Positions 35,655 to 41,871 of a stretch of DNA of 58,532 nucleotides are shown piece by piece; the first letter of the stretch is position 1; each line of letters begins with the position of its first letter. The notes beneath the pieces were generated by a model that saw only the letters and a program-made list of their open reading frames with translations, had not been told where the DNA came from and searched no databases. This DNA comes from Eubacteriales bacterium (GTDB lineage: Bacteria; Bacillota; Clostridia; Lachnospirales; Lachnospiraceae), in contig JAUNDV010000002.1 of assembly GCA_030525875.1 (NCBI GenBank), positions 1 through 58,532 on the forward strand, in the 5' to 3' direction. A program made the position numbers and the translations under genes.

Positions 35655-36677
35655 TTAATGTTTTTCTGCATATTCTATTGCGGCTTCACGTACCCACTCA
35701 AGACGTGTATCGTCGATATCGTTAGGAACGGTGCAATCGTCTCCGAGCATAACACCAACCTGACCACATTCATCAAGAATCTTGAATGCAGCTTCCTTAA
35801 CTTCTTCCTTTGTTCCCTTGTAGATGATTGTATCCTGTGCGTATCCTCCAAATACTGGCTTTCCGCCAAAGAGTTTCTTTCCATCGCTTAATGATACACC
35901 TTCAGCGTATACTGCGATATTGTAAGCAGCTGCTTCGTAATCCTTGAATAACTCAAGTGTGTTAGAAAGTCCGTGATATCCACAGATATGAAGAAGGTTC
36001 ATATTGCTAAGTTTGTTAGCGGCTGCCATAACCTTCTTATCAGATGGTGCAACATATTTTGCATAAAGTTCATCAGGTATATACTGTGCCTGATTGTTTA
36101 CGCTGAAGTAAATTCCATCTACGCCACATTCCTTAATAAGCATTTCGTTGAGTGCAATGATGCCATCAGCGATTTTATCAAGTGCTGCAACAACAGAATC
36201 AGGATCCTCCTCAAGATACTGAAGGAATAAAGGTTTCTGGTCAGAAACTGTTCCTACATCTAAACCGCTCAGACTTGTACGGAGAACGATATATGGAGAA
36301 AATCCGGTTGAATAAACAGGAGCATCACAATCTTTGTAGATTTCAAGAACACGCTCTGTAAGCTCTCTTGTTTTCTTTCCGTATGCAGAATCTACAGCAG
36401 GAGGTACTACATTTCTGAGGTCGGATGCCTTCTCGACAAAAGATGTATCGAGTGGCATGATCATAAGTGTATCATTCATAATTTTTGCAACGTCTGGATC
36501 GAATTTCTCGAGAGCGTATTTGTGTCCCATAACGTTACGCTCAAATGCGTCTGCATTTTCAAGGCCTGTTCCCCATTCTGGAGCTTCTACAAAATGGTGG
36601 AAGAATGCAACTGGAACACGATCTACAGGTTTGTTCTGTAAGAAGTTCATAAATCTTTCACGTTTTGTCATTGTCAT
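35655..36677 (-). CDS. uroporphyrinogen decarboxylase-like (URO-D/MtaA family) protein
   Basis: A 340-residue URO-D superfamily protein. The TIM-barrel N-terminus KRERFMNFLQNKPVDRVPVA and the zinc-type motif LLHICGYHG place it nearer to MtaA/CmuA-type corrinoid or coenzyme methyltransferases than to HemE. No heme genes are nearby. GAGG precedes the ATG by eight bases. A YkvI-like transporter follows. No corrinoid protein is encoded in the window, so the methyl acceptor and substrate are unknown. Confidence 0.8.
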   Translation of the reverse strand: MTMTKRERFMNFLQNKPVDRVPVAFFHHFVEAPEWGTGLENADAFERNVMGHKYALEKFDPDVAKIMNDTLMIMPLDTSFVEKASDLRNVVPPAVDSAYGKKTRELTERVLEIYKDCDAPVYSTGFSPYIVLRTSLSGLDVGTVSDQKPLFLQYLEEDPDSVVAALDKIADGIIALNEMLIKECGVDGIYFSVNNQAQYIPDELYAKYVAPSDKKVMAAANKLSNMNLLHICGYHGLSNTLELFKDYEAAAYNIAVYAEGVSLSDGKKLFGGKPVFGGYAQDTIIYKGTKEEVKEAAFKILDECGQVGVMLGDDCTVPNDIDDTRLEWVREAAIEYAEKH

Positions 36678-36794
36678 AAATATTTCCTCGCTTTCATTAT
36701 ACGCTTTGTATAAAATGTTAATAAAATAGTATCATGATGAAGAATATTTGTATAATGAATATAATTATTATGGGGTATAAATAAAAGTAATAAC

Positions 36795-36826
36795 CCAAAA
36801 TATACTCTAAAAAGCTTATATTTTGG
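36795..36826. repeat. inverted repeat CCAAAATATA-N12-TATATTTTGG
   Basis: Perfect 10-bp arms at 36795-36804 and 36817-36826 in the 302-bp gap between the UroD-like gene and tRNA-Gly. No T tract follows, so an operator is more likely than a terminator. The rest of the gap is AT-rich and holds a possible minus-strand -10 at 36696-36701. Confidence 0.6.
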
Positions 36827-36911
36827 CGAATTATGATACAAAATAACCTATAACAAAAAGATGATAGGAATGTGATGATGGATAGATGGATGAAAAAAAT
36901 AAAAAAAATGC

Positions 36912-36940
36912 TTGACTATTTTTGGTGCTTAGTATATACT
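36912..36940 (+). promoter_or_regulatory. promoter of tRNA-Gly(TCC)
   Basis: TTGACT at 36912-36917, 17-bp spacer, TATACT at 36935-36940, 39 bp before the tRNA. Confidence 0.8.
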
Positions 36941-36979
36941 TCAACATGTTCGAGAGAACAAAACAAATAAGTAACCTTC

Positions 36980-37050
36980 GCGGGTGTAGTTCAATGGTAG
37001 AATGACAGCCTTCCAAGCTGTACACGTGGGTTCGATTCCCATCATCCGCT
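36980..37050 (+). tRNA. tRNA-Gly (anticodon TCC)
   Basis: Acceptor GCGGGTG pairs with CATCCGC (one G-U); anticodon stem ACAGC/GCTGT surrounds CTTCCAA. Second tRNA-Gly of the window; it too is followed by accessory genes. Confidence 0.97.
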
Positions 37051-37052
37051 TC

Positions 37053-37092
37053 AACATCTATTTATGGTTTTTGACTGTAAATAGATGTTTTT
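37053..37092 (+). terminator. terminator after tRNA-Gly(TCC)
   Basis: Perfect 12-bp stem AACATCTATTTA/TAAATAGATGTT (37053-37064 and 37078-37089), then a T-rich run. Confidence 0.9.
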
Positions 37093-37097
37093 GTTTT

Positions 37098-37152
37098 ACA
37101 GGAAACTTCGTTTTCTGTAAAGTTAAAAAAGTACCTGTATAAAGACAGGTAC
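37098..37152. repeat. two adjacent short hairpins
   Basis: ACAGGAAA/TTTTCTGT (37098-37105, 37111-37118) and GTACCTGT/ACAGGTAC (37131-37138, 37145-37152). They lie between the tRNA terminator and the 3' end of the DUF operon; the second may terminate that operon. Confidence 0.5.
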
Positions 37153-37265
37153 AAAAATAGATAACACGGTTTTACAATATATAAAAGCCTCCAACACAAT
37201 GCCAGCTTACCCTAAAAATGGATCAGAATTAAGGGGACGGATAGATTGATAATGTCAATTTCATC

Positions 37266-37472
37266 TTATGCGGATTGCCTGGCTTCGATATATAGATCAA
37301 TATCTTCTACAATATATTTTTCACCAGTGGTGTGAAGTGCTTCATAACAAGAATAAATATATTCCCACACACGGTATTTGGTAAAAAGTGCAGAAACCTG
37401 CTTGCCGGTTAAATTCTTTGCGGTTTTGTATTTCTCGACACAGTAGATCAGAAAAATTCCTTCCTTACTCAT
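37266..37472 (-). CDS. DUF3791 family protein
   Basis: A 68-residue protein resembling DUF3791, with the pattern FLIYCVEKYKTAKNLTGKQV, then a WEYIYSCYEALHTTGE segment and a short Asp-Ile-Asp-Tyr-like C-terminus. Family function is unknown; members recur beside DUF3990 genes. An ATG at 37478 overlaps the upstream stop, but GAGGAGG ends too close to it; ATG 37472, seven bases downstream of the SD, is preferred. It is the last gene of the four-gene operon and a candidate antitoxin or accessory partner. Confidence 0.8.
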   Translation of the reverse strand: MSKEGIFLIYCVEKYKTAKNLTGKQVSALFTKYRVWEYIYSCYEALHTTGEKYIVEDIDLYIEARQSA

Positions 37473-37474
37473 AA

Positions 37475-37714
37475 TCATACCTCCTCTGGAAATGTAAATG
37501 TACCGGTTTTCTTTTCTTCATCAAACATATTGAATAGCATCAAAGGACTTAGATGCCATACTTTTGTATCTTCATGCTCTAATGAAGAATACACTCCCGA
37601 TTCATAAAACTCTCTGGAAGCAGCTACTTCGTCGTATGGATAGTGTTCCGTGATCAGACGGATTACCTGCGGAACCAAAAGTGTTAACACTGCTTCAAAT
37701 TTCTGTTTCTCCAT
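37475..37714 (-). CDS. small acidic protein of unknown function in the DUF3990 operon
   Basis: I do not recognise this 79-residue protein. It is predicted mostly helical, with an N-terminal amphipathic segment (VLTLLVPQVIRLITEHY), a Glu/Ser middle part and a WHLSPLMLFNMFDEE motif, which would suit a protein-protein interaction. It starts within the stop codon of the DUF3990 gene (TAATG), and its SD GAGGAGG is formed by the last Glu codons of that gene. Coupled position suggests an antitoxin or cofactor of the DUF3990 protein. Confidence 0.75.
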   Translation of the reverse strand: MEKQKFEAVLTLLVPQVIRLITEHYPYDEVAASREFYESGVYSSLEHEDTKVWHLSPLMLFNMFDEEKKTGTFTFPEEV

Positions 37715-38205
37715 TAAAATTCCTCCTCTGGAACTGTTCCGATAAATTTCAGGTAACTTAATGCATTTTCTGATGTAAACACCAGCTGGTTATAGAGTTT
37801 CTTAATTTTTAAGGCTTCGAGAGTCTGCTCTTTTGAAAACACACCGGCTGTATATAAGTTAAAGGTTGTATAAACATCATCATTGGCGACCGGTCCGAAG
37901 ATAATGTCAAAAGCTTCGCCGTTATAGTTTCCAGCCCGATTGTCAGATACAAAATCTAACCAGGCTTCATTTGCGGTATCAAAGCTCAAAACAGAACATG
38001 AAGAAAATGCCTTCGCTTTATCAAGTTCATAGATATTTACGACTCGACGCCCCTCTTTTCGGCGCTTGTATACTTTGTCAGCAAAGCCAATTGCCTGCAT
38101 CTTATTTGTTGTTGTGTAAAATCCGAAACCAAAGTCTAGAAAACGATTTTGCTGGATGAGCTTTGGCTTGGATACGATTACATTACTTCCATGGTATAAA
38201 ATCAT
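37714..38205 (-). CDS. DUF3990 family protein, predicted ADP-ribosyltransferase fold
   Basis: A 163-residue cytosolic protein matching the DUF3990 pattern: LYHGSN at the N-terminus, [20 protein letters not shown] at about 23-42, and a late [15 protein letters not shown] segment at about 138-152. The H-G-S, G-x-G-F-Y-x-T and terminal Q-x-V/F blocks resemble the H-Y-E/Q core of ADP-ribosyltransferase-type toxins; this is inference by motif. It starts inside the stop of the preceding gene (ATGA). It would be the effector or toxin of the operon. Confidence 0.82.
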
Positions 38206-38504
38206 AGATTTTCCTCCAATATTTTTGTGGCGAGTCTCTGCTCCTTGGTCAAGGACTTGATCATGGCTTCAACATGGTGACGTTTATCAACCTGCTCTCG
38301 TACTTCTTTAATCTCATCTTTCCCGACATACTTTGAAATGACCTTTTTTCCGTCTCTGTATTTTAGATAGTAGTAGATATTTCCATTGATTTTCTTTTCA
38401 GAAATCGTACCTTTTGGAAGATTGGAAAGTGTTTCCTGATACCTCGCCAACATATAGTCTATTCTCTGTTTTTCCTGTAAAACTGTATTTAAAATCATAT
38501 TCAT
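38202..38504 (-). CDS. DUF6788-like small basic protein
   Basis: A 100-residue protein, first of the operon. A helical start ([20 protein letters not shown]) is followed by a beta pair with a conserved-looking Tyr-Tyr-Leu-Lys-Tyr-Arg-Asp-Gly-Lys core and a basic helix ending [13 protein letters not shown]. The layout resembles DUF6788, whose members often sit in mobile elements. GTG 38513 is in frame, but AGGTG placed six bases upstream favours ATG 38504. A consensus-like promoter lies directly upstream. Confidence 0.7.
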
Positions 38505-38521
38505 GTCAATCACCTATCTAT

Positions 38522-38550
38522 ATTATACCCAACTAAAACTTGTATATCAA
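38522..38550 (-). promoter_or_regulatory. promoter of the DUF3990 operon
   Basis: On the minus strand TTGATA (38550-38545), 17-bp spacer, TATAAT (38527-38522), 18 bp before the first ATG. It is among the best promoters in the window, so the operon should be expressed. Confidence 0.8.
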
Positions 38551-38582
38551 TATATGTTGTGTAAAGCGTAGAAAAAAGAAAG

Positions 38583-38602
38583 ACCCCTCAATCATGAGGG
38601 GT
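38583..38602 (-). terminator. terminator of the XRE-cupin regulator gene
   Basis: ACCCCTCA/TGAGGGGT stem with a 4-base loop. On the minus strand it is followed by CTTTCTTTTTTC, giving a T-rich tail. Confidence 0.85.
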
Positions 38603-38636
38603 GTTGATATGTCGCATACCTTTTGTTCTATAAAAC

Positions 38637-39317
38637 TCAATTAGAAGTCCTTGCTATAGGAAACCATATCGCTGGTGTAAAGAGCGATAAGCCGGTGACG
38701 GTGGTATCAAGCTCATTGTATATGGTGTGAGGAATGTTTGACTTTAGGAGCATGCTTTCTCCATTGCGGAGTCTGATTTTCTCTCCAGGGATTTCGATGA
38801 CTAGTTCGCCACTTTCTACAATAATAATTTCCTCACTTGGATGCTTTACTGGAAAGTCTCCGTCAGCTGACTTTGGATCAAGTTCAAATCTTATTACCAA
38901 AGACTGAGGAACATACTTAGGAGATGGCATCGGTGACAGGAGATGGTATTTAACATGTGAGTTAGGCAGTGACAGGCTTACGATCTGATCAGAAGTAATT
39001 TTTACATAACTTACATTGCTGTCGTCATTCTCTGTACTAGGAGTTTCCTTTTCAGAAGCTACAGGAGCAGTCTGGATGGCTGACTCATCATAATCGTCCT
39101 CTTCGCTATATTCTCCATCAAGCTCTACCTGCTTCATAAAATAATAAGTAGGAACATCCAGGGCCTGACTTATCTTACGAAGAGTGGATAAAGATGGTTC
39201 GGTCTGATTTCTTTCTATCTGAGATATATAACCGATGGAGAGTCCTGATTTCTCTGATATTTCCTTTAAGGTTGTTCTCTTCTGCTTTCTTACAGATCTA
39301 ATAATATCACCTAACAT
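38637..39317 (-). CDS. XRE-family regulator with C-terminal cupin domain
   Basis: A 226-residue regulator with an N-terminal helix-turn-helix (about 8-62, with LKEISEKSGLSIGYISQIER), an acidic linker and a cupin sensor domain (about 145-215, with HPSEEIIIVESGELVIE and SNIPHTIYNE). Such regulators usually control a nearby amino-acid, peptide or polyamine catabolic operon. It diverges from the epimerase/DUF819/peptidase genes, and an inverted repeat lies between the -35 and -10 of that operon, so it is the likely regulator. Confidence 0.92.
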   Translation of the reverse strand: MLGDIIRSVRKQKRTTLKEISEKSGLSIGYISQIERNQTEPSLSTLRKISQALDVPTYYFMKQVELDGEYSEEDDYDESAIQTAPVASEKETPSTENDDSNVSYVKITSDQIVSLSLPNSHVKYHLLSPMPSPKYVPQSLVIRFELDPKSADGDFPVKHPSEEIIIVESGELVIEIPGEKIRLRNGESMLLKSNIPHTIYNELDTTVTGLSLFTPAIWFPIARTSN

Positions 39318-39539
39318 AAAGTATTATTCTCCTTAATATACTGAATAAACGCATTTGTTCTATGATTAATATACCAAAAAATAAGACATTAAACTATTTA
39401 TATTAAAAAATAAGATAAAAAAACTTTTTTTTGGCTATTATACATATATAGATATTACTTAAATTCATACAAGACAAATCTTAAAATTATACTAATTGTG
39501 TAAAATAGTGAGATTATAGTAATAAAACGCGTTAAGCTG

Positions 39540-39568
39540 TTGACACAAAATTTTACAAATAGTAAAAT
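39540..39568 (+). promoter_or_regulatory. promoter and operator of the epimerase operon
   Basis: TTGACA at 39540-39545 and TAAAAT at 39563-39568 (17-bp spacer). The inverted repeat ATTTTAC-AAATA-GTAAAAT (39550-39568) fills the spacer and -10, an ideal repressor site. Confidence 0.65.
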
Positions 39569-39600
39569 TGCGATAATATATTTTTACGGAGGAAATATAA

Positions 39601-40677
39601 ATGAAGATTACAGACATTAAAATTGAAAAGCTTTATATTCCTATGAAAAAGCCATTTAAGATCGCTTTTGCTGAGCAGGATCATTCAGAGAACATTCTTG
39701 TAAAGATCATGACAGACGAAGGCATCTGGGGTATAGGAGAGGCAGCGCCTTTTGAGCCAGTTACAGGTGAGTCAAATGAGACAGTTATCTGCGTTCTCAA
39801 CTTATTCAGGCAGGCTCTTATCGGCATGGATGCTGTAAATATTGAGCAGATTCACGTTATGATGGATCGTCTCATTGTTGGAAATACAGCAGCTAAGGCA
39901 GCTATTGATATTGCTCTTTACGATATCAAGGGTAAGATGATGGGACAGCCTCTTTACAAGGTTCTTGGTGGAAATTCTAATTCTTTCATTACAGATATGA
40001 CAATCGGAATCGATACACCAGAGAATATGGCAGCTGAGGCTAAAAGCCGTGTTGAAGATGACGGTTTCAGCGTTCTTAAGATTAAAGCAGGAATCAATCC
40101 TGAAAATGATATAAGAGCTATTAAGCTTATCAGAGAGGCAGTAGGACCTTCTGTAAGACTTAGAGTTGATGCTAACCAGGGCTACACAGTTAATGATGCA
40201 ATAAGAACACTTAATGCATTTGACGAGGTTGGAGGAGTTGAGGCTGTTGAGCAGCCAGTTCCTTACTGGGATGTAGACGGAGCAGCATTTATCCGTTCAA
40301 AGGTAAATGTTAAGGTTATGCTTGATGAGACTATCCATACATCAATTGATGCTGCAAGAGCAGTAAAGAAGGATGCAGCAGATATTCTTAATATCAAGCT
40401 TATGAAGTGTGGCGGACTCTATGAGGCAGAGAAGATCAATGCTATTGCAGAGGCTAACCATGTTAACTGTATGGTAGGCTGCATGCTTGAGTCTAAGGTT
40501 GCTATCGCTGCAGGTGCAAGTTTCGTTGCTGCTAAGGCAAACGTAACTGAGGCTGACTGTGACAGCTTTATGTATGCTGTAGATCCTGAAATGGGAATGA
40601 GCGGCGGATTTACTATTAAGAACGGTGTTTATACAATGTCAGAGAAGCCAGGTCTTGGCCTTGATATTGATTTCTAA
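39601..40677 (+). CDS. dipeptide epimerase (L-Ala-D/L-Glu epimerase type), enolase superfamily
   Basis: A 358-residue muconate-lactonising-type enolase-superfamily enzyme. The catalytic set is complete: Lys160 and Lys162 in the LKIKAG motif, metal ligands Asp190 (DANQGY), Glu217 (EQP) and Asp242 (LDET), and Lys266 on the other face. The N-terminus MKITDIKIEKLYIPMKKPF and the pattern of specificity residues suit AE (Ala-Glu) epimerases of murein-peptide recycling, though other dipeptides are possible. AGGAGG-like SD present. Operon with a DUF819 transporter and a CocE-type peptidase. Confidence 0.88.
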   Translation: MKITDIKIEKLYIPMKKPFKIAFAEQDHSENILVKIMTDEGIWGIGEAAPFEPVTGESNETVICVLNLFRQALIGMDAVNIEQIHVMMDRLIVGNTAAKAAIDIALYDIKGKMMGQPLYKVLGGNSNSFITDMTIGIDTPENMAAEAKSRVEDDGFSVLKIKAGINPENDIRAIKLIREAVGPSVRLRVDANQGYTVNDAIRTLNAFDEVGGVEAVEQPVPYWDVDGAAFIRSKVNVKVMLDETIHTSIDAARAVKKDAADILNIKLMKCGGLYEAEKINAIAEANHVNCMVGCMLESKVAIAAGASFVAAKANVTEADCDSFMYAVDPEMGMSGGFTIKNGVYTMSEKPGLGLDIDF

Positions 40678-40698
40678 ATTAGAACAGGGGGATATTTT

Positions 40699-41871
40699 AT
40701 GGAGCCAACAACCTTATTAAGTTCACCTGGTGCTTTACTGATGGTTATGTTTATGGTAGTCGCACTTGGTTTCTACCTTCAGAGATTCAAATGGGTTAAG
40801 CCATTAGGACCAGCACTTACAGTTATTATTATTGGAATAATTTTATCTAACTTAAAGATAGTTCCTGTATCAGATCCAACATATGATGCATTAACTACCT
40901 ACTGTGTACCTCTTTCAGTTAGTATCTGTCTGTTGAGCCTTGATCTTAAGCAGATGAGAAAGCTTACAAAGGAGCCTCTTATAGCTCTTGCATCAGCTGT
41001 AATCAGCGTTTGCTTCGCAGCTTTTGTATTTGGTCTTTTCTTTGCAGACAAGGTACCAGAGGGATGGAAAGTTGCAGGTATGTTCGTTGGAACATATACA
41101 GGAGGAAGCTCAAACCTTACTGCAATTGCTGTTGGACTTGATGCTGCTAAGGAGACTATTGCAGCAGCTAACGCAGCTGACTATGTTGTAGGTATTCCTT
41201 CACTTATCTTATACTTTGCTATGCCTGCTATTTATGCAAGCTCAAAGTTATTAAAGAAGTTCTGGCCATATCATTTTACTGAGGCTGAGCTTGCTGGCGG
41301 AGATGATGAAGAAGAGCTTATGGCAGCTAAGGAGTGGAGCATTCAGGAGATTGCATGGCTTCTTGGTATAGGTTTCCTTATTGTATGGGTTGCTACTACT
41401 ATTTCAGGAATGATCTTTGGAGAAGGTTTCAGAAGTGCAGGAAGAATACTTCTTATCACTACATTCTCAATCATAGCAGCACAGATTCCATTTGTTCAGA
41501 GACTTAGAGGAAACTTTGATCTTGGTCTTTATGTAGCACTTTTATTCCTTGTAACAATTGGTTTTGCAGTAGATTTAAAGCAGTTCTTTGGATCAACCTT
41601 CTATATTACTTTGTTCTGCTTCTGCGTAATAGCTGTTTCTACCTTGCTTCACCTCTTCATTACAAGACTGTTCAAGGTTAGATTTGAGTATATCCTGCTT
41701 TCAATCGTTGGATGTATCTCTGACGGACCAACAGCAGCTTTGGTAGCATCAAGTGCTAAGTGGAAATCAATCATCAATATTGGTCTTCTTATGGGTGTTC
41801 TTGCAGGTGCGCTGGGTAACTATGTTGGAATTTCAGTTGCTTATGCAATAAAGGCAGTTCTGGGCTTTTAA
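40699..41871 (+). CDS. DUF819 family membrane protein
   Basis: A 390-residue protein with about ten transmembrane helices, typical of DUF819 (YjcL-like). A conserved-looking GTYTGGSSNLTAIAVGL segment sits at about residues 134-150, and a DGPTAALVASS segment near 355; both are signature-like. A hydrophilic Glu-rich loop lies at about 195-215. Family function is not established; the neighbours suggest a dipeptide or peptide-derived substrate. It begins 21 bp after the epimerase with its own GGGGG SD. Confidence 0.85.
   Translation: MEPTTLLSSPGALLMVMFMVVALGFYLQRFKWVKPLGPALTVIIIGIILSNLKIVPVSDPTYDALTTYCVPLSVSICLLSLDLKQMRKLTKEPLIALASAVISVCFAAFVFGLFFADKVPEGWKVAGMFVGTYTGGSSNLTAIAVGLDAAKETIAAANAADYVVGIPSLILYFAMPAIYASSKLLKKFWPYHFTEAELAGGDDEEELMAAKEWSIQEIAWLLGIGFLIVWVATTISGMIFGEGFRSAGRILLITTFSIIAAQIPFVQRLRGNFDLGLYVALLFLVTIGFAVDLKQFFGSTFYITLFCFCVIAVSTLLHLFITRLFKVRFEYILLSIVGCISDGPTAALVASSAKWKSIINIGLLMGVLAGALGNYVGISVAYAIKAVLGF

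What the first reader, a model, noticed from the sequence alone, without database searches (positions are those of the whole stretch)
37266..38513. Four-gene DUF3990/DUF3791 operon beside tRNA-Gly: candidate ADP-ribosyltransferase toxin system
Four small genes overlap end to start (ATGA, TAATG, ATGA) behind a near-consensus promoter. Seen: the second gene has LYHGS, GFGFYTT and a late YNQLVF block. Established: DUF3990 and DUF3791 are uncharacterised families often found together, and ART toxins share an H-Y-E/Q core. Inference: the DUF3990 protein is an ADP-ribosyltransferase effector, and one or more of the three small partners (DUF6788-like, a 79-residue unknown, DUF3791) is the antitoxin. 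Three partners would make this more than a standard two-gene toxin-antitoxin pair.
Basis: partly seen in the sequence, partly recalled or inferred. Interest (0 to 1): 0.75.

Follow-up and report, generated by a model that had tools for sequence, protein, structure and literature searches.

The report
ADP-ribosyltransferase toxin with twin antitoxins
A small bacterial gene cluster that probably makes an ADP-ribosylating toxin, held in check by two related partner proteins and switched by its own repressor; similar clusters are catalogued as possible anti-virus systems but remain unexplained.

Summary
The four minus-strand genes are real. Best reading: a three-gene toxin-antitoxin core plus an optional repressor gene. 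(1) DUF3990 (168 bits) looks like an ADP-ribosyltransferase (ART): H5, Y30 and Q140 are kept in 107, 110 and 110 of 110 relatives, and 39 of 88 members also hit Pfam ART-PolyVal. Its fold could not be modelled (tool off). (2) The 'unknown' 79-residue protein is a distant paralogue of DUF3791, so the two small downstream genes are twins. In 291 genomes of the class I count 38 intact ART+twin loci, in two gene orders. In 11 further loci the twins are intact but the ART is broken (4) or absent (7); an intact ART of this clade with a lost twin was not seen there (one case elsewhere). This points to the twins as antitoxin. (3) The DUF6788-like first gene is accessory. An inverted repeat straddling the promoter goes with it (8 of 10 loci with the gene, 0 of 50 without) and recurs above nine held-out copies of the gene elsewhere. 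I read the gene as an autorepressor. PADLOC already lists the core as phage-defence candidate PDC-M13. Toxicity, target, neutralisation, DNA binding and defence are untested.

The parts
38522..38550 (-). Promoter: -35 TTGATA (38545-38550), 17 nt, -10 TATAAT (38522-38527)
   Evidence: 11 of 12 consensus bases; -35/-10 aligned in eight loci
38526..38563 (-). Putative operator: inverted repeat, half-sites TACACAAC (38556-38563) and GTTGGGTA (38526-38533), 7 of 8 complementary, straddling -35 and overlapping -10
   Evidence: present in gene-1 loci only
38202..38504 (-). Gene 1, DUF6788-like (100 aa from ATG 38504; the listed ORF starts at GTG 38513): accessory, probable autorepressor
   Evidence: DUF6788 21.4 bits, below cut-off
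37714..38205 (-). Gene 2, DUF3990, 163 aa: probable ADP-ribosyltransferase toxin (H5, Y30, Q140)
   Evidence: Pfam 167.8 bits; PADLOC PDC-M13A 3.5e-74
37475..37714 (-). Gene 3, 79 aa: distant DUF3791 paralogue, probable antitoxin subunit
   Evidence: No Pfam hit; PADLOC PDC-M13B 1.2e-29; profile comparison with DUF3791
37266..37472 (-). Gene 4, DUF3791 (68 aa from ATG 37472; the listed ORF starts at 37478): probable antitoxin subunit
   Evidence: Pfam 80.8 bits; PADLOC PDC-M13C 1.2e-37
37131..37152 (-). Possible terminator of the operon (8-pair stem, T run)
   Evidence: Pattern scan only; 3 such sites found in the region against 2.1 expected by chance, so weak

Best explanation
A toxin-antitoxin operon. 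Gene 2 is an ADP-ribosyltransferase toxin of H-Y-Q type that would use NAD+ to modify an essential cell component. Genes 3 and 4 are paralogous small DUF3791-type proteins that together form the antitoxin. Gene 1 is an autorepressor that binds an inverted repeat straddling the promoter. The likely use is phage defence by growth arrest, or upkeep of mobile DNA, when the twins are lost or displaced. Shown by computation: families, motif conservation, twin relationship, three-gene linkage, loss pattern, the repeat and its link to gene 1. Inferred: catalysis, toxicity, neutralisation, DNA binding by gene 1, defence.
For: ART: H5/Y30/Q140 in 107/110/110 of 110; ART-PolyVal matched by 39 of 88 members at E <= 1 (best 1.3e-4), next Pfam family 8 of 88; Pfam's ART clan lists DUF3990 (PMC7955679, passage); DUF3990 as C-terminal domain of a T6SS Rhs protein with a predicted immunity ORF (PMC4524185, passage). 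Antitoxin: 48 of 77 DUF3791 hits within 1 kb of a DUF3990 hit on the same strand, 0 on the opposite strand only, about 0.07 expected; 38 intact ART+twin loci in two orders; twins fused in one ORF in L145 and L117; repeats of the same kind in the partner of other DUF3990 classes; twins intact with ART broken (4) or absent (7) against 0 the other way in the class genomes. Repressor: repeat of at least 7 of 8 in 8 of 10 gene-1 loci against 0 of 32 and 0 of 18; nine held-out gene copies; repeat only 5 of 8 in L022, where gene 1 is deleted.
Against: No structure model. Profile comparison with DarT and KptA found nothing, though the KptA set was poorly made. No PDB chain beyond chance. The third catalytic position is Q, not E. 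Solo DUF3791 genes occur with no ART beside them (L129, L130, L132-L135, L137, L142), so that family has other uses. L007 has an intact ART and gene 3 but no DUF3791 gene. Seven of the 11 ART-less loci hold no ART trace and may never have had one; the four with a trace alone are 4 against 0 (P 0.125). Breaks in draft genomes may be assembly errors.
Confidence: 0.68

Rival explanations
1. A phage-triggered effector, not a classic toxin-antitoxin pair: gene 2 is harmless until the DUF3791 twins, acting as sensors or activators, switch it on.
For: PADLOC lists the core as a phage-defence candidate. Two partners fit a sensor plus regulator, as in CmdTAC (PMC11618068, abstract). Solo DUF3791 genes show uses outside ART loci.
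Against: Twins kept without an ART in 11 loci and the reverse in none of the class loci fits an inhibitor better than an activator.
Confidence: 0.15
2. DUF3990 is a pseudo-enzyme or an NAD-binding regulator, because the usual catalytic glutamate is a glutamine.
For: Q at position 140 in 110 of 110 relatives, never E.
Against: Invariance of H, Y and Q through a family of down to 19% identity speaks for a working site; use as an Rhs toxin tip (PMC4524185, passage).
Confidence: 0.08
3. One reading: gene 1 (DUF6788-like) is itself an antitoxin and the system needs four genes.
For: In g1-bearing loci gene 1 directly precedes and overlaps the ART start.
Against: Present in 3 of 38 intact class loci and 5 of 35 genome-contig loci; deleted in the nearest relative L022; occurs without an ART, always with the repeat in the nine copies tested.
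Confidence: 0.06

Closest known systems
PADLOC phage-defence candidate PDC-M13 (A/B/C)
   Same: Genes 2, 3 and 4 hit PDC-M13 models (3.5e-74, 1.2e-29, 1.2e-37). PMC13356809 (passage) counts 3,324 PDC-M13 in rumen genomes.
   Different: Gene 1 matches no PADLOC model at E <= 1. I found no mechanism for PDC-M13 in the one paper that the search for the name returned.
CmdTAC mRNA ADP-ribosyltransferase defence (PMC11618068, abstract and section list only)
   Same: ART effector encoded with two partner proteins.
   Different: There the partners are an antitoxin and a chaperone; here the two partners are paralogues of each other and no chaperone family was hit.
DarTG DNA ADP-ribosylation toxin-antitoxin
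   Same: ART-type toxin with antitoxin gene beside it (general knowledge, recalled).
   Different: No detectable DarT similarity; no macrodomain hit among the partners.
T6SS Rhs proteins ending in DUF3990 (PMC4524185, PMC10763514; one passage each)
   Same: Same Pfam domain, in a toxin position; in PMC4524185 beside a predicted immunity gene.
   Different: There it is the tip of a large secreted protein; here a small stand-alone protein with DUF3791-type partners.

Membership tests
DUF3990 (PF13151) | Score over Pfam gathering cut-off | tested here: met
   167.8 against 32.2 bits
ADP-ribosyltransferase superfamily | H-Y-[E/D/Q] catalytic motif | tested here: met
   H5/Y30/Q140 in 107/110/110 of 110; that these are the equivalent positions is inferred, the motif itself is recalled knowledge
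ADP-ribosyltransferase superfamily | Sequence link to another ART family | tested here: met
   39 of 88 members hit ART-PolyVal at E <= 1, best 1.3e-4; against: DarT and KptA comparison negative
ADP-ribosyltransferase superfamily | ART fold | not testable with these tools
   Structure prediction switched off
ADP-ribosyltransferase superfamily | NAD+-dependent transfer of ADP-ribose | not testable with these tools
   Needs biochemistry
DUF3791 (PF12668) | Gene 4 over gathering cut-off | tested here: met
   80.8 against 25 bits
DUF3791 (PF12668) | Gene 3 over gathering cut-off | tested here: not met
   No Pfam hit; distant paralogue by profile comparison only
DUF6788 (PF20586) | Gene 1 over gathering cut-off | tested here: not met
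   21.4 against 27.2 bits; 9 of 9 relatives match at E <= 0.1, best 7.2e-5
PDC-M13 (PADLOC) | Component models hit by adjacent genes | tested here: met
   Genes 2, 3, 4; PADLOC's own system rule was not run
PDC-M13 (PADLOC) | Protection against phage | not testable with these tools
   No experiment; PMC12988326 (passages) says most such candidates lack validation
Toxin-antitoxin module | Small co-oriented coupled genes that travel as a unit | tested here: met
   Overlaps; similarity to L022 found only at 37266-38243 and 38461-38565 of window 36000-41000; window-type ART in 1 of 25 genomes of the genus
Toxin-antitoxin module | Toxin lost more often than antitoxin | tested here: inconclusive
   11 against 0 in class genomes (P 0.001), but only 4 of the 11 hold an ART trace (4 against 0, P 0.125); ART-biased second set 6 against 1
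Toxin-antitoxin module | Toxicity and neutralisation | not testable with these tools
   Needs expression assays
CmdTAC | Chaperone gene in the operon | tested here: not met
   No chaperone family among Pfam hits at E <= 1
DarTG | DarT domain and macrodomain antitoxin | tested here: not met

The most novel reading that the evidence does not exclude
Two new functional classes in one operon. (a) A DUF3791 superfamily of paired repeats (two genes, or one two-repeat protein) that is the dedicated antitoxin of DUF3990 ADP-ribosyltransferases throughout their classes. (b) DUF6788-like small proteins as a new class of transcription factor that represses its own promoter through a widely spaced inverted repeat (half-sites such as TACACAAC, TACCCAAC, TACCCCAC, starts 29-32 nt apart).
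Probability: 0.45. Interest if true: 0.68.

Novelty: new variant of a known kind. Interest (0 to 1): 0.56.

Why it matters
DUF3990, DUF3791 and DUF6788 have no assigned function in Pfam. PDC-M13 is among the more frequent candidate defence loci in rumen genomes (3,324; PMC13356809, passage). Reading the genes as ART toxin, twin antitoxin and promoter-straddling repressor gives each a simple, separate laboratory test. If true, a common class of ART toxin-antitoxin systems sits unlabelled in gut bacteria and on Bacteroidales plasmids, and an unnamed small-protein family gains a DNA-binding role.

Tried and rejected
PDB sequence searches for genes 2, 3 and 4 gave nothing beyond chance; rows at E 0.2-1.6, among them one of a listed toxin (E 1.1), were not pursued. 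PARP as an ART yardstick was nearly absent (1 of 199 genomes, below cut-off). hhalign with DarT and KptA was negative; the KptA set held wrongly picked ORFs (L166 was set aside; L167 and L173 were wrong but stayed in), so that half is a weak test.

The first gene-3 against DUF3791 comparison, on narrow alignments, found nothing. A wide one gave E 3e-13 but shared 16 members, so I rely on the disjoint one. The shuffle controls printed nothing usable and were redone.

tRNA-Gly as integration site: no repeated end; GC of operon and window both 0.375. A general search for 9-nt inverted repeats was too permissive (169 of 603 controls, 35 of 360 shuffles; 5 of 9 operon loci and 9 of 9 other gene-1 loci) and was replaced by a trained, spacing-bound score. 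Three top controls probably were duplicate gene-1 loci; one search repeats the control without 44 gene-1 loci. One search scored L062 from the wrong -10 hexamer; one search corrects it. A still earlier inverted-repeat scan did not separate the groups. Idea that all four genes are a fixed set: rejected. Idea that the module is mainly viral: 9 of 50,697 phage records, 72 of 72,556 plasmid records.

Rows left out: from 11 against 0 I left out contig-edge loci (L131, L141), both-damaged loci (L116, L119, L124) and L117 (fused twins apart from an ART remnant on the other strand); in the genome contigs set L032 and L026 (contig edge) and L029 (masked N stretch in DUF3791). In one search I left out one DUF3791 row that passes its cut-off only together with its neighbours (G288). 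In one search I examined 38 of the 43 other intact ARTs, chosen by class.

Full report
What is there. Four co-oriented genes lie on the minus strand at 38513-37266. DUF3990 (167.8 bits) and DUF3791 (80.8 bits) are clear; the first gene resembles DUF6788 below its cut-off and the third has no Pfam hit. The promoter is supported by conservation: its -35 TTGA and its -10 align in eight loci. Two start codons should probably be moved, gene 1 to ATG 38504 and gene 4 to ATG 37472; this is inference from ribosome-site spacing and homologues.

Gene 2 is ART-like. In 110 relatives selected by coverage, H5, Y30 and Q140 are kept in 107, 110 and 110 (one of the three H misses is a gap at a truncated end). 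In an alignment of 88, only D24, G28, Y30, R90 and Q140 are invariant. Scanned one by one at E <= 1, 88 of 88 hit DUF3990 and 39 of 88 hit ART-PolyVal (best 1.3e-4); the next Pfam family reaches 8. Pfam's ART clan lists DUF3990 (PMC7955679, passage). Against: DarT and KptA profiles gave no match (KptA set poor), the PDB has no detectable relative, and no model could be made. DUF3990 as C-terminal domain of Rhs proteins of type VI systems (PMC4524185 and PMC10763514, one passage each) supports toxicity by position only.

The partners are twins. Gene-3 and DUF3791 profiles from disjoint sets (74 and 89 sequences) match along 51 columns at E 1e-5 (6.6e-6 after trimming); the best of 60 column-shuffled controls reached 0.0039 and the reversed profile 0.14. 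Sixteen intermediate ORFs hit both profiles. Of the 35 genome-contig loci, found by ART peptides, 35 have a gene-3 relative and 34 a DUF3791 relative. In 291 class genomes, DUF3990 passes its cut-off at 96 places in 57 genomes. In loci fetched around these and around DUF3791 hits, 81 ARTs are intact: 14 sit in the window's order (ART, gene 3, DUF3791), 24 with DUF3791 first, and 43 belong to other arrangements. A tree without support values places the 38 together, with the small 155-aa-partner class nested among them. Of 77 DUF3791 hits over the cut-off, 48 lie within 1 kb of a DUF3990 hit on the same strand, none on the opposite strand only, about 0.07 expected; 35 genomes have both where 8.6 are expected. 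Each family thus also occurs alone.

One unit, two repeats. In L145 and L117 the twins form one ORF. Of the 43 other intact ARTs I examined 38 and found a downstream partner ORF of at least 90 aa for 36. By class the partner resembles the twins as follows: about 155 aa (4 proteins), second half E 3.3e-7 and first half 1e-3; mostly about 212 aa (24 proteins), E 1.7e-3 and 3.6e-4 in two places; about 140 aa (8 proteins), E 3.6e-8 to the combined profile. Column-shuffled controls stayed at 0.08 or worse (15 each). The 212-aa and the 1e-3 matches are weak, so 'all DUF3990 ARTs have a DUF3791-type partner' is a bold reading.

Loss pattern. In the class genomes the ART is broken with both twins intact in 4 loci (L082, L100, L118, L143) and the twins stand without any ART in 7 (L128, L136, L138, L139, L140, L144, L145); both sides are damaged or incomplete in 3 (L116, L119, L124); I saw no intact ART of this clade with a lost twin, apart from the nested class with a 155-aa partner. 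In the genome contigs set, biased towards ART, six loci have a broken ART with intact twins (L028, L031, L033-L036; no N runs) and one, L007, the reverse. ART (about 490 bp) and twins (about 450 bp) are equal targets. This is what toxin-antitoxin decay predicts, but the seven ART-less pairs may never have had an ART, and draft assemblies can break genes; without the seven it is 4 against 0, P 0.125.

Gene 1 is a probable repressor. It is present in 5 of 35 genome-contig loci and 3 of 38 intact class loci, in none of the 24 with DUF3791 first, and is internally deleted in the nearest relative L022. An inverted repeat whose downstream half overlaps the -10 hexamer and whose upstream half starts 36-38 nt before it matches in at least 7 of 8 positions in 8 of 10 gene-1 loci (6 of 8 in L005 and L008), in 0 of 32 loci of the same order without gene 1 and in 0 of 18 DUF3791-first loci that have a -10-like hexamer (Fisher P 2e-8, or 1e-7 with the near-identical L177/L178 counted once; kinship among loci makes these too small). 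Both halves change together between lineages: TACACAAC, TA(T/C)CACAC, TACCCCAC. In L022 the repeat is at 5 of 8, no better than shuffles. A half-site matrix trained on these operons then scored nine gene-1 relatives outside them (L103 and eight stand-alone copies): scores 11.2 to 23.4 at spacing 29-31. With gene-1 loci removed from the controls, 13 of 673 upstream regions reach 11.2 and 1 reaches 16.4 (five of the nine do); Mann-Whitney P 2e-7, or 3.5e-4 with one per group for four groups. By eye, L212 and L233 repeat the overlap with the -10; in L210, L211 and L214 the repeat encloses it. That gene 1 itself binds is inferred.

Mobility. Similarity to L022 is limited to 37266-38243 and 38461-38565, that is the operon without most of gene 1, and its promoter. 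The window-type ART is found in 1 of 25 genomes of the genus; ten others have diverged matches (26-41% identity, and 47% over 34 residues in one). Matches occur in 72 of 72,556 plasmid records, mostly Bacteroidales, and 9 of 50,697 phage records; a viral-contig scan gave 15 loci.

Known or new. The core is PADLOC's PDC-M13, counted but not explained in PMC13356809 (passage). Searches for DUF3990, DUF3791, DUF6788, PDC-M13 and the Pfam accessions returned 4, 1, 0, 1 and 1 papers; the passages that I read in them do not explain the system. No preprints and few subscription papers are held, so it may be described elsewhere. I call it a new variant of a known kind: an ART toxin-antitoxin candidate with paralogous twin antitoxins and an optional repressor.

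Noticed in passing
L210-L215, L232, L233: Stand-alone DUF6788-like genes, not beside ARTs, preceded by widely spaced inverted repeats; L215 and L232 appear to have two sets. Possibly a self-regulating solitary gene family.
   Followed up: partly
L129, L130, L132-L135, L137, L142: Solo DUF3791 genes without ART or gene 3, several scoring as high as those of intact operons; in L134 and L137 directly beside ATPase-like genes.
   Followed up: no
L097, L111, L112: A DUF3990 class of about 290 aa starts with what reads by eye as an XRE-type helix-turn-helix, so the ART may help regulate itself; L097 holds two DUF3990 classes in tandem.
   Followed up: partly
L204: 2555-4615 (plasmid pBF9343): DUF3791, DUF3990 and a hypothetical gene directly followed by a zeta-toxin family gene on a conjugative Bacteroides plasmid.
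   Followed up: no
L078: Two complete DUF3791-ART-gene3 modules in tandem, diverged from each other.
   Followed up: no
window 38637-39317: The XRE-cupin regulator gene upstream of the operon has no close relative in 20 other genomes of the genus (best 54% over 63 residues), so the region beside the operon may be acquired too.
   Followed up: no
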